Assembly: GCF_001457635.1 (NCBI RefSeq)
Contig: NZ_LN831051.1
Location: 186,001-250,000, forward strand
From: Streptococcus pneumoniae
Lineage (GTDB): Bacteria; Bacillota; Bacilli; Lactobacillales; Streptococcaceae
DNA length: 64,000 nucleotides
Direction: 5' to 3'
Positions 57,923-63,928 of the stretch are shown in pieces. The position numbers and the translations under genes are program-made. Numbering within the stretch: the first letter of the stretch is position 1; every line of letters starts with the position of its first letter. The notes below the pieces were generated by a model that was given only the letters and a program-made list of their open reading frames with translations, did no database searches and had not been told where the DNA came from.

Positions 57923-59011
57923 TTATTTTGAATTTACATAGGCATCTACAGCGATAATAGCTTGAGCAACATCTGAGGGCGAAATCTTAAACGGCATCTG
58001 ATGAATTGTCTCACCCTCCATAGTTGCTTGTTTACCAACTTTTATTAAATCATCATATCCAACTTGATCCAAATGCATTTCTTTTAGAGTTGTTGGCATA
58101 CCAATTTTTTTGTAAAACTCAATATACTTATCAAGTTCTTCTTTAGGTCTATTTTCCAATAATAGTTGTACTAAAGTTCCATAAGCTACTTTTTCACCAT
58201 GTGTTAAATGATGAATGTCGCCTGTCAATGCAGTAAAACCATTATGAATTGCATGCGCCGCAGCTAATCCTCCACTTTCAAAACCTAGGCCACTCAATAA
58301 AGTATTAGCTTCAACAATATTTTCTAATGCTGGTGTCACCACTTTAGCTTCACAAGCTGCCATAGCCTGTAAACCATCTGCAAACAGCGTTTCTTCACAT
58401 TTCTTCGCAATTGCAACTCCAGCCAATGTTTGCTGTTGTCCCAACATAGTTTTTCCATTTGCCTGCATAACCGCACGCGCCTCAACCCAAGTTGCTAAAC
58501 CATCTGCAATACCAGACGCTAATAAACGCTTAGGGGCTTGTGAAATAACTTTTGTATCAACCAAAACTAAATCTGGATTTTTAGAATAAAATAGATAATG
58601 ATCAAATGCACCTTCATCTGTATAAATAACAGATAAAGCAGATACAGGTGCGTCGGTCGATGCAATTGTTGGAGCAATAATAACAGGCTTTTCAATCAAA
58701 TCTGCAATAGCTTTTGCGCTATCAATCGTCTTTCCCCCACCAAGACCGATAATACTATCACAATTTTCTTTCTCAGCCAAGGCAACAACTCGATTGATTT
58801 CATTGTCAGAAGCTTCACCATTAAATAGCGCCAGAACAATATGGAAACCATACCTATGTAGATAATCTTCAAATCGTTTTCCAACAATATCATAAACCAA
58901 CTGATCGCATAATAGAATAGGGTAATTTCCCAAATCCAAAATTGATTTGGCATTTTCAAACAAGGCATTTTCCCCCTGAATATATCTAGAAGGACTAGCA
59001 AAAATTCTCAT
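57923..59011 (-). CDS. gldA: Glycerol dehydrogenase family (iron/zinc polyol dehydrogenase)
   Basis: 362 residues. NAD-binding GLGGGKTIDSAKA (about 92-104), then PTIASTDAPVSALSV, and metal ligands in SGIADGLATWVEA and HAIHNGFTAL / HLTHGEKVAYG. The family oxidises glycerol to dihydroxyacetone and reduces hydroxyacetone to 1,2-propanediol. As last gene after a glycyl radical enzyme and an aldolase, reduction of a ketone product is the more likely role. Confidence 0.93.
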   Translation of the reverse strand: MRIFASPSRYIQGENALFENAKSILDLGNYPILLCDQLVYDIVGKRFEDYLHRYGFHIVLALFNGEASDNEINRVVALAEKENCDSIIGLGGGKTIDSAKAIADLIEKPVIIAPTIASTDAPVSALSVIYTDEGAFDHYLFYSKNPDLVLVDTKVISQAPKRLLASGIADGLATWVEARAVMQANGKTMLGQQQTLAGVAIAKKCEETLFADGLQAMAACEAKVVTPALENIVEANTLLSGLGFESGGLAAAHAIHNGFTALTGDIHHLTHGEKVAYGTLVQLLLENRPKEELDKYIEFYKKIGMPTTLKEMHLDQVGYDDLIKVGKQATMEGETIHQMPFKISPSDVAQAIIAVDAYVNSK

Positions 59012-59028
59012 ATGTATTTCCTCTCTAT

Positions 59029-59697
59029 CTAAATGGAACGACTATTTTGAGTAACAAACCAATCGTCAGAAAAATCATCAACCGCCTTTTGGATAGATGG
59101 CATGGCGAAAGCTGATTCAAAAACATCTGCTCCTGCTGTAACAGCATGCGCACCTGCAGCTAAAGCATTATTTACTTGTGCTACATTTTTAAAGGATGCA
59201 GCTAAAATCTTACTAGGAGAGTTCTGTCTATCAATAGCAAGAGCTAATTGACGAATGACAGAATTTGAATCAATGTTCAGATTTTCCATTCTATTATAAT
59301 ATGGAGCTAGGTAATCCGCTCCTGCTTCGATAGCTAATAATCCCTGAATAACTGTATAAATAGCTGTTGCAGTGATATGGTAGCCCTCTTTTTTTAGCGC
59401 CTTTATTGCACGTAATCCAGCTGGAGTAACAGGTACTTTGATAAATATATCATCTCCTGCTTGTCTTCGAATTTTATGAGCGTCCTTTAAGATGCCTTCA
59501 AAATCTTGAGAAATCACCTGAACATGAATAGAGGGTGTAGAGCCAATCAATTCTCTTACATCTTTGATTCGTTCAAAAAAATTAATAGAACCCTCTCTTT
59601 TTGCAATAGTGGGATTTGAAGTTACCCCAGCTAGCGGCAAAATTTCAGACCACTTTTTAATCTCATCTAAATTTAATGTGTCAAGCATAAATTCCAT
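59029..59697 (-). CDS. talC: Fructose-6-phosphate aldolase / transaldolase-like TalC
   Basis: 222 residues, the short (FSA/TalC) type of transaldolase. Schiff-base Lys87 in IFIKVPVTPAG; Tyr133 in LAPYYNRMEN equals the Tyr131 of E. coli FSA that favours aldolase over transaldolase chemistry. FSA cleaves fructose 6-phosphate or 1-deoxy analogues to a C3 ketone and glyceraldehyde 3-phosphate. Lies 18 bases after the GRE gene and 18 before gldA. Confidence 0.93.
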   Translation of the reverse strand: MEFMLDTLNLDEIKKWSEILPLAGVTSNPTIAKREGSINFFERIKDVRELIGSTPSIHVQVISQDFEGILKDAHKIRRQAGDDIFIKVPVTPAGLRAIKALKKEGYHITATAIYTVIQGLLAIEAGADYLAPYYNRMENLNIDSNSVIRQLALAIDRQNSPSKILAASFKNVAQVNNALAAGAHAVTAGADVFESAFAMPSIQKAVDDFSDDWFVTQNSRSI

Positions 59698-59715
59698 AAA
59701 AAGAACCTCTTTATT

Positions 59716-62228: not shown

Positions 62229-62304
62229 GCTTTTAACTAGAAAAATTTTAACTCTCTAATTTTTAGCACAAATGTGTGAGTTTAACAGTAACACACAAAT
62301 ACCT

Positions 62305-63603
62305 CTAAGATTGTTTGATTTCATTTTGGTAAGCTAAACGATCTTGTATCTTAAAGAATGGAAAGTAAACCACTGTAGATATCACCAATACTAATAACTG
62401 AGTCACAACACCTTGCCATCCACCCACCAAAAATCCTGATAGAATAGCTGGTGTACTCCAAGGCAATGTTACCCCTGAGAATGGCTGCATGAAACCTGTT
62501 GCAATAGCTCCATATACTATCACAGCTGCAAGTACAGGAACAAGAATGAAAGGTACAAACATAACTGGATTCATGACAATCGGAAATCCAAATACAACTG
62601 GCTCATTTACGTTAAATATTGCTGGAAAAGCTGCAACTTTTCCTAAGGTTTGGTATTGTTTTGATTTTGCTGCAAAAAGCATGGCAACTACAAGACCAAA
62701 CGTAATCCCTGAACCTGATAGAATTAAAAATGAATCTAAAAATTGTTGAGTAACAATATGTGCACCATTTTCTAATGATAGATTAGCAGAGGCTAACATA
62801 GCTTTATTAGCGTCAAGATTAGATAAAAGCAGAGCTGTCACTACTCCATTTACTACCGATTGCCCATGAACACCAAACCACCACAAAAATGATATAAAGA
62901 ATGCAATTCCAATAGCACCATACAAAGATCCAGTTAAACCTTGCAACGGAACTTGAATAGCAGAATAAATCATTTCTATGAATGTTCCGCCATTAGTCAA
63001 TGACTTCGCTAAAATATATACAATCATAGAAGATAAGAAAATTACAAATGCTGGAATCATTGCTTCAAACTGTTTGGCAATAGCTTGTGGAACTTGTTCT
63101 GGCATCTTAATAACAATTTTTCTCTTTATAAAGAAGGTATAAATACTTCCTACTACCAAACCTATAATGATAGCACCGATAATTCCTTGGCCTCCAAACC
63201 AAACTTTACTAATAGCGTCCCCAATCGCCTCACCTTGTTTAGGGATATAAGATGATCTTAGCAAAATAAAGAATGCAGATACAGATAGAACTCCAGCTGG
63301 TAAAGCCTCTACTCCGCTATTCTTAGCATAAGAATAGGCAATTGAAAAACAAGAAATTAGACCCATAATAGCAAAAGTTCCTGAATATACTTGCATAAAC
63401 GGCTCTGTCCAATTAGCTCCAAAAACACTAGCAATGCTCTTATTTAATCCTTCGAACGGCAATTGTCCCATAATCAAGAACAAACTACCAACTACTGTCA
63501 ATGGCAAAATTGCTAACATCCCATCTTTTAGAGCTATAATGCCACGCATATTCACAAACTTCATCATCGGTGCAATGATTTTCTGAACATCCATCTTTGA
63601 CAT
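62305..63603 (-). CDS. PTS lactose/cellobiose-family IIC permease
   Basis: 432 residues from the ATG at 63603 (AAGGAG upstream). About ten membrane helices and FNVNEPVVFGFPIVMNP near residue 325. It imports the substrate of the GRE pathway as its phosphate. It shares only family-level likeness with the IIC at 3719. Starts 16 bases after IIB. Confidence 0.93.
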   Translation of the reverse strand: MSKMDVQKIIAPMMKFVNMRGIIALKDGMLAILPLTVVGSLFLIMGQLPFEGLNKSIASVFGANWTEPFMQVYSGTFAIMGLISCFSIAYSYAKNSGVEALPAGVLSVSAFFILLRSSYIPKQGEAIGDAISKVWFGGQGIIGAIIIGLVVGSIYTFFIKRKIVIKMPEQVPQAIAKQFEAMIPAFVIFLSSMIVYILAKSLTNGGTFIEMIYSAIQVPLQGLTGSLYGAIGIAFFISFLWWFGVHGQSVVNGVVTALLLSNLDANKAMLASANLSLENGAHIVTQQFLDSFLILSGSGITFGLVVAMLFAAKSKQYQTLGKVAAFPAIFNVNEPVVFGFPIVMNPVMFVPFILVPVLAAVIVYGAIATGFMQPFSGVTLPWSTPAILSGFLVGGWQGVVTQLLVLVISTVVYFPFFKIQDRLAYQNEIKQS

Positions 63604-63619
63604 AATAAATCTCCTTTTC

Positions 63620-63928
63620 TTACCCACTAATCAAAGATAGGGCCAAATCTAATACTTTTTTCCCATCTAACATACCATAGTCCATCATCGGAATAACAGC
63701 TATCGGAACATCACACTTATCACAAATTTCTTTTGATTTATCTAATGTATAAGCAACTTGTGGACCCAATAGTGCAACATCTATATTTGGCGCATAATCC
63801 GCTAATTTAGACTGAGAAAACGCCTCTATTTCTGCCTCAACTCCACTAGCTTGCGCTGCAATTTTCATATTATTTACAAGCATACCAGTAGAAAAACCTG
63901 CTGCACAAAACAAACCAATCTTCACCAT
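63620..63928 (-). CDS. PTS lactose/cellobiose-type IIB
   Basis: 102 residues with phosphocysteine Cys8 in GLFCAAGFSTGM. GGAGG precedes the ATG. It pairs with the IIC that follows and with an IIA gene likely just beyond the window edge. Confidence 0.94.
   Translation of the reverse strand: MVKIGLFCAAGFSTGMLVNNMKIAAQASGVEAEIEAFSQSKLADYAPNIDVALLGPQVAYTLDKSKEICDKCDVPIAVIPMMDYGMLDGKKVLDLALSLISG

What the first reader, a model, noticed from the sequence alone, without database searches (positions are those of the whole stretch)
57923..63928. Glycyl-radical sugar pathway: PTS + non-PFL glycyl radical enzyme + FSA-type aldolase + GldA
Seen: a PTS IIB-IIC pair, a glycyl radical enzyme with a single active-site cysteine (G-C-V-E, Cys445) instead of the Cys-Cys of pyruvate formate-lyase, then an FSA-type aldolase (Lys87, Tyr133) and a GldA-type dehydrogenase. 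Established: E. coli has a similar set (pflD, frw PTS genes, fsaB, gldA) at one locus. Inference: the enzyme acts on a PTS-phosphorylated sugar or anhydro-sugar, TalC splits the deoxy-ketose product to hydroxyacetone plus glyceraldehyde 3-phosphate, and GldA reduces hydroxyacetone to 1,2-propanediol. From memory, a radical route of this sort has been proposed for 1,5-anhydroglucitol 6-phosphate; I cannot verify that here.
Basis: partly seen in the sequence, partly recalled or inferred. Interest (0 to 1): 0.75.

Follow-up and report, generated by a model that had tools for sequence, protein, structure and literature searches.

The report
Streptococcal operon for radical anhydro-sugar breakdown
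This is a streptococcal gene cluster that very probably imports 1,5-anhydroglucitol, a sugar alcohol found in human blood and saliva, and breaks it open with an oxygen-sensitive radical enzyme of a kind already characterised in E. coli; the chemistry is known, but the substrate has not been tested in streptococci here.

Summary
On the minus strand lie PTS IIB and IIC, a single-cysteine glycyl radical enzyme (GRE), an FSA-type aldolase and GldA; lactose-family IIA straddles the window end, then come SorC- and DeoR-type regulators and a divergent activase. The chemistry is already published: a review (PMC12441222, passage) credits Ma et al. (JACS 2024, not held) with E. coli YbiW opening 1,5-anhydroglucitol-6-phosphate, and PflD 1,5-anhydromannitol-6-phosphate, to 1-deoxyfructose-6-phosphate. 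The window's GRE is YbiW-type, not PflD-type: 50% versus 36% identity, clade support 96/96, grouping with PflD rejected (AU p 2e-8), 35 near-invariant residues shared only with YbiW versus 3 only with PflD. A genus relative's PflD-type GRE sits with a different, Frw-type PTS. New here: a palindromic box equally spaced before both promoters, present in 29 of 37 genus genomes with such GREs and 3 of 81 without, and a link to lineage-marker reports (pneumococcus versus S. mitis, S. suis ST1, S. pyogenes M1UK) that leave the substrate open or read the locus as pyruvate/glycerol metabolism. No reaction was assayed. New member of a known kind; moderately interesting.

The parts
57923..59011 (-). GldA-type dehydrogenase (362 aa); inferred to reduce hydroxyacetone to 1,2-propanediol
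   Evidence: NF006941 557.8 bits, cut-off 336; best solved relative 13go, glycerol dehydrogenase, 581 bits
59029..59697 (-). FSA/TalC-type aldolase (222 aa; Lys87, Tyr133); inferred to split 1-deoxyfructose-6-phosphate
   Evidence: (NF009299 418.2 bits, cut-off 214)
59716..62163 (-). Glycyl radical enzyme of the YbiW clade (815 aa from GTG; likelier ATG start at 62154); predicted 1,5-anhydroglucitol-6-phosphate lyase
62165..62198 (-). Tandem DeoR-like operator: TTTTCGAAAGAAA at 62165-62177 and 62186-62198, 21 bp apart, directly after the -10
   Evidence: 2 of the 3 exact copies in the 2.11 Mb genome; for relatives
62200..62228 (-). Promoter-like site of the GRE operon, TTGAAA-17-TATTAT
   Evidence: promoter-like sites as a whole are not above shuffles: 45 found, 42.1 expected
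62265..62276 (-). Box CACATTTGTGCT, 36 bp upstream of the -35; the second copy lies 36 bp upstream of the IIA -35 (window coordinates 64431-64442, outside the window)
   Evidence: (only two exact copies in the genome); in the window alone one copy is unremarkable (0.60 expected at up to 1 mismatch)
62305..63627 (-). PTS IIC, lactose/cellobiose family (440 aa)
   Evidence: TIGR00410 385.2 bits, cut-off 236
63620..63928 (-). PTS IIB, lactose/cellobiose family (102 aa, Cys8)
   Evidence: (PF02302 67.6 bits, cut-off 23.6); under the NCBIfam cut-off
63974..64000 (-). 3' end of PTS IIA (lactose family; the gene continues past the window to 64294)
   Evidence: PF02255 112.2 bits, cut-off 27; under the NCBIfam cut-off

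Best explanation
It is a catabolic locus for 1,5-anhydroglucitol (1,5-AG). The lactose-family PTS imports 1,5-AG as its 6-phosphate; the activase installs a glycyl radical at Gly791; the YbiW-type GRE opens the ring of 1,5-AG6P to 1-deoxyfructose-6-phosphate; the FSA-type aldolase splits that into hydroxyacetone and glyceraldehyde-3-phosphate, which enters glycolysis; GldA reduces hydroxyacetone to 1,2-propanediol and reoxidises NADH. A SorC-type regulator, probably an activator reading a phosphorylated intermediate, acts through the GCACA-WW-TGTGC box on both promoters, and the DeoR-type regulator represses the GRE promoter. Shown here: gene content, clade membership, shared residues, the box and its spacing. 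Shown elsewhere for E. coli YbiW, as told by a review: the ring-opening reaction. Inferred: the PTS substrate, the activity of this GRE, the aldolase and GldA steps, and which protein binds which site.
Against: No assay in any streptococcus was found. 50% identity leaves room for a changed substrate. By Z alone a propanediol dehydratase (5i2g, 48.8, 37% identity) is tied with 8id7, so the structure separates YbiW from PflD and PFL but not from diol dehydratases; the sequence ranking does that. GldA matches lie near the GRE in only 13 of 57 eligible loci, lactose-type IIC in 13, and FSA is not found within 6 kb in 14 of 57. E. coli ybiW has neither PTS nor gldA beside it. The locus is patchy: 37 of 118 genus genomes have a GRE over the cut-off. 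S. pyogenes GldA acts on glycerol in extracts (PMC10210942 passage), so its role in the operon need not be hydroxyacetone reduction. The residues holding 1,5-AG6P in 8id7 were not read from coordinates. Box statistics are not corrected for relatedness; 8 of 37 GRE genomes lack a perfect box and 3 genomes have one without a GRE. Binding of the box by the SorC-type protein is inferred; L014 and L022 have SorC-like genes but no box at up to 2 mismatches.
Confidence: 0.82

Rival explanations
1. The GRE belongs to the YbiW clade but has drifted to another PTS-phosphorylated anhydro- or deoxy-sugar (for example another anhydrohexitol phosphate); the downstream steps stay the same.
For: The PTS is of a family (lactose/cellobiose) that E. 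coli ybiW does not have beside it; identity to YbiW is only 50%, and 39 of 267 near-invariant clade residues differ from YbiW.
Against: 35 clade-wide residues are shared only with YbiW; good overall fit to the 1,5-AG6P complex.
Confidence: 0.12
2. It is a PflD-type enzyme acting on 1,5-anhydromannitol-6-phosphate, as the reader's pflD parallel would imply.
For: Operon content (PTS, FSA, GldA) resembles the E. coli pflD locus.
Against: AU test p 2.2e-8; 3 versus 35 signature residues; genus relative G021 carries both types, the PflD-type one 60% identical to E. coli PflD, matching S. dysgalactiae PflD (8id0) at 1475 bits and lying beside Frw-type IIB/IIC, apart from the YbiW-type locus.
Confidence: 0.04
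3. A pyruvate formate-lyase paralogue for mixed-acid fermentation, as annotated in streptococcal literature.
For: Annotation: 'pyruvate formate lyase' in PMC3302838, 'pflD' with pyruvate metabolism in PMC10210942 and PMC13262394 (passages).
Against: Single cysteine; far outside PFL in both trees; the genome has a true Cys-Cys PFL elsewhere; 24% identity to PflB.
Confidence: 0.01
4. A B12-independent glycerol or propanediol dehydratase working with GldA.
Against: Sequence scores: YbiW and 6xs4 867-886 bits, glycerol dehydratase 1r8w 617 bits, 5i2a 552; does not explain the PTS or aldolase. Diol dehydratases were not in the trees.
Confidence: 0.01

Closest known systems
E. coli YbiW (1,5-anhydroglucitol-6-phosphate lyase; Ma et al. 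2024 as told by PMC12441222; PDB 8id7, 8yjn) and Enterobacter cloacae ECL_02896 (6xs4)
   Same: YbiW is in the same GRE clade, with a single active-site cysteine and 35 exclusive residues; 6xs4 and 8id7 superpose at 1.8-1.9 A; ybiW has an activase and an FSA-type aldolase beside it.
   Different: 50% identity; here a lactose-family PTS, GldA and two regulators are in the locus, absent beside E. coli ybiW; the activase lacks the cysteine-rich insert of E. coli YbiY (47 residues with no Cys versus 91 with 6).
E. coli pflD-frw-fsaB-gldA locus and S. dysgalactiae PflD (8id0, titled as bound to 1,5-anhydromannitol-6-phosphate)
   Same: PTS + GRE + FSA + GldA logic.
   Different: Different GRE clade (36% identity) and different PTS family (Frw versus lactose type); in genus relative G021 both loci coexist (L100, L101).
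S. pneumoniae SP_0245-SP_0253 (PMC3302838, PMC6722419 passages), S. pyogenes M5005_Spy1741-1745 (PMC10210942 passages), S. suis ST1 gldA/fsaA/pflD/pflA island (PMC13262394 passages)
   Same: Same gene order as far as those papers state it; the window is most probably the pneumococcal locus or that of a near relative (organism not given; inference).
   Different: Those papers leave the substrate unknown or assign the locus to pyruvate/glycerol metabolism. The strains of those papers were not compared here; of these species only S. suis relatives were (L009 and L011).

Membership tests
YbiW-type 1,5-AG6P lyase (GRE) | Glycyl radical motif and a single catalytic Cys with Glu two residues on | tested here: met
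   Gly791, Cys448, Glu450; PF01228 and PF02901
YbiW-type 1,5-AG6P lyase (GRE) | Groups with E. coli YbiW, apart from PflD, CutC, HypD and PFL | tested here: met
   96/96 in 24 rows; 99 SH-aLRT in 42 rows
YbiW-type 1,5-AG6P lyase (GRE) | Residues that bind 1,5-AG6P in 8id7 | tested here: inconclusive
   35 clade residues shared with YbiW alone and overall superposition, but ligand contacts were not read from coordinates
YbiW-type 1,5-AG6P lyase (GRE) | Cleaves 1,5-AG6P to 1-deoxyfructose-6-phosphate | not testable with these tools
   Needs an anaerobic assay
YbiW-type 1,5-AG6P lyase (GRE) | Radical SAM activase in the locus | tested here: met
   TIGR02494 287.9 bits, cut-off 174.35; divergent gene at window coordinates 66350-67126
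PflD-type 1,5-AM6P lyase | Groups with E. coli PflD | tested here: not met
   AU p 2.2e-8
PflD-type 1,5-AM6P lyase | Frw-type PTS partner | tested here: not met
   PTS is lactose family; Frw-type IIB/IIC sit with the PflD type in E. coli and in L100
Pyruvate formate-lyase | Adjacent Cys-Cys in the active site | tested here: not met
   GCVE in the window GRE versus CCVS in own PFL and PflB
B12-independent diol dehydratase (GRE) | Closest relatives are glycerol/propanediol dehydratases | tested here: not met
   Sequence ranks 6xs4 and YbiW 250 bits or more above them; fold alone does not separate them
Fructose-6-phosphate aldolase (FSA) | Schiff-base Lys and active-site Tyr | tested here: met
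   Lys87, Tyr133; NF009299 418.2 bits, cut-off 214
GldA (glycerol / L-1,2-propanediol dehydrogenase) | Subfamily profile and metal-ligand positions | tested here: met
   NF006941 557.8 bits, cut-off 336; below the stricter equivalog NF047954 (416.1 versus 700); Asp170/His253/His271 (ligand identity recalled)
GldA (glycerol / L-1,2-propanediol dehydrogenase) | Reduces hydroxyacetone to 1,2-propanediol | not testable with these tools
   Needs an assay

The most novel reading that the evidence does not exclude
Streptococci carry a dedicated 1,5-anhydroglucitol regulon, driven by a SorC-type regulator through the GCACA-WW-TGTGC box, that feeds on a host polyol of blood and saliva under anaerobiosis. 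This single pathway would account for the orphan PTS conserved in the sequenced pneumococci, for one of the gene sets that separate S. pneumoniae from most S. mitis and from S. oralis, for an S. suis ST1 island, and for the operon up-regulated in S. pyogenes M1UK, where loss of GldA would leave hydroxyacetone or its precursors unconsumed and so keep the operon induced.
Probability: 0.45. Interest if true: 0.72.

Novelty: new member of a known kind. Interest (0 to 1): 0.5.

Why it matters
The enzyme and pathway are already in print for E. coli and, by the review's words, many other gut bacteria. What the assignment adds is a specific, cheap test of an open question: PMC3302838 names this PTS as one of only two pneumococcal PTS for which no substrate could be identified, and PMC10210942 says that the pathway of the S. 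pyogenes operon is not fully understood and the sugar not known (passages). If right, 'mixed-acid fermentation' and 'glycerol metabolism' readings of these loci need correcting, and 1,5-AG, a glycaemia marker (PMC12441222 passage), becomes a candidate host nutrient for streptococci. The two-box promoter anatomy gives regulator targets to test. Lower salivary 1,5-AG in caries-active children (PMC6383396, abstract) would fit bacterial use, but that is only a correlation.

Tried and rejected
PFL, diol dehydratase and PflD-type readings were tested by sequence rank, tree (not diol dehydratases), signature residues and structure and set aside. Folding the GRE without an alignment gave a useless model (pLDDT 32.6); only the alignment-based model was used. 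A general promoter/terminator scan was not above chance (45 promoter-like sites versus 42.1 expected; 1 terminator-like versus 4.6), so the promoters rest on position relative to the box: in 5000 pair-shuffles of the 100 nt after each box, a site scoring at least as well at offset 36 came up in 0.1% (IIA) and 0.06% (GRE). The box search within the window alone was no better than chance (1 found, 0.60 expected at up to 1 mismatch); the weight lies on the whole-genome count and on relatives. The means of uptake that replaces the lactose-type PTS was looked for in some of the relatives: clear in L041, L061, L064 and L080, and a Gat-type IIC about 3.5 kb off in L018; L012 has an ABC permease gene about 1.2 kb past the GRE; the few genes tried in L016, L035, L066 and L077 gave nothing convincing. 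One search (S. suis PFL paper) held none of the terms tried; (pneumococcal galactose/PFL paper) held none of the locus names tried. (103 papers, mostly noise, 20 listed) led to PMC6722419; (115 papers, 12 listed) gave nothing that I followed up.

Statements about print: no held paper has both gldA and anhydroglucitol (0 papers); 48 hold anhydroglucitol and Streptococcus, of which I saw 15 listed, none about streptococcal catabolism by title; 2 held papers cite Ma et al., neither on streptococci (I read passages of both). Ma et al. itself is not held, and since 8id0 is a streptococcal PflD, that paper may well name streptococcal YbiW-type genes; I cannot claim the assignment is unpublished.
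Full report
What is there. The five minus-strand genes of the finding are confirmed at the stated coordinates. The gaps are short (GRE to FSA 18 bp, FSA to GldA 17 bp, IIC overlapping IIB by 8 bp), with one break of 141 bp between IIC and the GRE that holds a promoter-like site and operator-like repeats. The whole genome (one contig, 2.11 Mb) shows what the window cuts off: lactose-family IIA, a sugar-binding (SorC-type, PF04198) regulator, a DeoR-type regulator and, divergently, a radical SAM activase. 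Searched with the GRE, the genome gives one other protein, a true PFL with the Cys-Cys pair.

Known chemistry. The review PMC12441222, section 5.1 (passage), reports that Ma et al. found that YbiW and PflD cleave 1,5-AG6P and 1,5-AM6P respectively to 1-deoxyfructose-6-phosphate, after PTS phosphorylation, and that this lets E. coli and many other gut bacteria grow on 1,5-AG. The reference is J Am Chem Soc 2024;146:26187, which is not held. The split of 1-deoxyfructose-6-phosphate by FSA into hydroxyacetone and glyceraldehyde-3-phosphate follows from FSA's acceptance of hydroxyacetone as donor (recalled) and was not read here. E. coli GldA is annotated as L-1,2-propanediol/glycerol dehydrogenase in RefSeq, which fits the last step.

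Two parallel loci in the genus. One genus relative (G021) has both GRE types. Its PflD-type protein is 60% identical to E. coli PflD and matches S. dysgalactiae PflD (8id0) at 1475 bits; it lies beside FrwC/FrwB-like IIC/IIB (49%/56%), a PflC-like activase (46%), an FSA and its own SorC-type gene (L100). Its YbiW-type GRE (86% to the window's) lies beside lactose-type IIA/IIB/IIC and GldA (L101). So the E. coli PflD-Frw pairing recurs in this streptococcus, and the YbiW type has its own lactose-type PTS there. Another relative (G004, L102) repeats the window's order: divergent activase, DeoR, SorC, IIA, IIB, IIC, GRE, FSA, GldA. The locus is not universal in the genus: 37 of 118 genomes have a TIGR01774 GRE over the cut-off.

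Surroundings in relatives. Of 80 loci, 57 have at least 2 kb on both sides of the GRE; of these, activase within 6 kb in 52, a DeoR-type match in 44, FSA in 43 (directly 3' in 38), SorC in 19, lactose-type IIA in 14, IIB in 14, IIC in 13, GldA in 13 (tblastn with the window genome's proteins at 40 bits or more, so distant versions can be missed). Other routes to a phosphorylated sugar replace the lactose-type PTS in some: a ROK kinase abutting the GRE with an ABC importer in a Treponema MAG (L080), ROK kinase plus PTS_EIIC in Aerococcus (L041), mannose/sorbose PTS in C. beijerinckii (L064), PTS_EIIC_2 in C. sardiniense (L061), Gat-type IIC some 3.5 kb away in E. pallens (L018). In others I found none in the few genes tried. 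This variation argues that the constant is a phosphorylated substrate, not one carrier.

Regulation. The 12-mer CACATTTGTGCT occurs twice in the 2.11 Mb genome (reversed control 0): once before the GRE and once before IIA. In the window alone a single copy at up to 1 mismatch is no surprise. In both places it ends 36 bp before a -35-like hexamer with a 17-bp spacer. In 10 other loci the distance from the matched 12-mer is 35-39 bp or 26-28 bp, about one helical turn less (these loci were chosen because they have the box, so this is not a count of all). The palindrome GCACA-WW-TGTGC is found without mismatch in 29 of 37 genus genomes with a TIGR01774 GRE (YbiW- or PflD-type) and in 3 of 81 without one (Fisher p 4.5e-17, not corrected for relatedness). 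38 of the 47 boxes, in 28 genomes, lie within 6 kb upstream of a GRE, at 150-223 bp or about 2.2-3.1 kb. The window's own GRE box departs from the strict palindrome at one base, and one further perfect palindrome in this genome lies far from the locus. TTTTCGAAAGAAA occurs three times in the genome, two of them in tandem right after the GRE -10, with similar sites in many of 17 relatives' loci (up to 2 mismatches, which also gives scattered hits). I read this as a SorC-type activator on both promoters and a DeoR-type repressor on the GRE promoter; which protein binds which site is inference. PMC3302838 (passage) already mentions PflR sites upstream of SP0245, SP0246 and SP0251.

Link to streptococcal literature (passages only). 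PMC3302838: the lactose-type PTS SP0248-50 with SP0251-53 is conserved in all sequenced pneumococci and is one of only two pneumococcal PTS with no substrate identified. PMC6722419: SP_0245-53 is present in 100% of S. pneumoniae, 0% of S. pseudopneumoniae, 20% of S. mitis and 0% of S. oralis strains in its Table 1. [quoted passage not shown] suis ST1, absent from ST123, read there as glycerol and pyruvate metabolism. PMC10210942 and PMC12885024: in S. pyogenes M1UK a truncated gldA goes with up-regulation of gldA-mipB-pflD-IIC-IIB; deleting gldA in another background abolishes glycerol dehydrogenase activity and reproduces the up-regulation of pflD, mipB and IIC; the authors discuss dihydroxyacetone build-up and call the pathway not fully understood. 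S. pyogenes sequence was not examined here; that its 'pflD' is the YbiW type rests on gene order, the cellobiose-type PTS annotation and the same GldA length (362 aa). In the pathway proposed, loss of GldA would block hydroxyacetone disposal, which would explain induction if an intermediate is the signal; this is a hypothesis beside the authors' dihydroxyacetone one.

Weighing. As biochemistry it is already known; as an assignment for the streptococcal locus I found no held paper that makes it, but the key paper is not held. I therefore rate it a new member of a known kind, with moderate interest because it makes several open streptococcal questions directly testable.

Noticed in passing
L004:12351-13127 (+) and relatives: The YbiW-clade GRE is served by activases of two builds: without a cysteine-rich insert (as in the window genome: 47 residues, no Cys, between CxxxCxxC and the GGG-SGGE motif) and with one. 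Of 79 rows, which include E. coli, CutC and HypD controls, 38 are short, 24 long and 17 unresolved.
   Followed up: partly
G021:C1:68618-71131 (L100): The PflD-type GRE of a genus relative has the same GCACA-WW-TGTGC box 223 bp upstream and its own SorC-type gene, so both anhydro-sugar loci may share one type of regulator.
   Followed up: partly
G000:C1:1931531-1931542 (L103): A further perfect palindrome (GCACAATTGTGC) in the window's genome, outside this locus; six ORFs nearby without similarity to the operon or to the E. coli pflD locus.
   Followed up: no
L080:1422-7982: Treponema MAG: ABC importer, divergent activase and a ROK-family sugar kinase abutting the YbiW-type GRE, a PTS-free version of the route.
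   Followed up: partly
L004:14288-17461: Downstream of the activase lie ORFs that look like an ABC transporter (binding-protein piece, ATPase, permease in two overlapping frames), apparently interrupted; families not checked.
   Followed up: no
L012:6558-7826: In S. bovimastitidis the place of the PTS genes is taken by a 422-aa protein with three Ribonuc_L-PSP stretches, no GldA match is found, and an ABC permease gene follows downstream.
   Followed up: no
L065:7908-16535: Lactobacillus selangorensis has a YbiW-type GRE and, 2.9 kb on, a second GRE (35% identical to the window's) with its own activase, and FSA, SorC- and DeoR-like genes between them.
   Followed up: no
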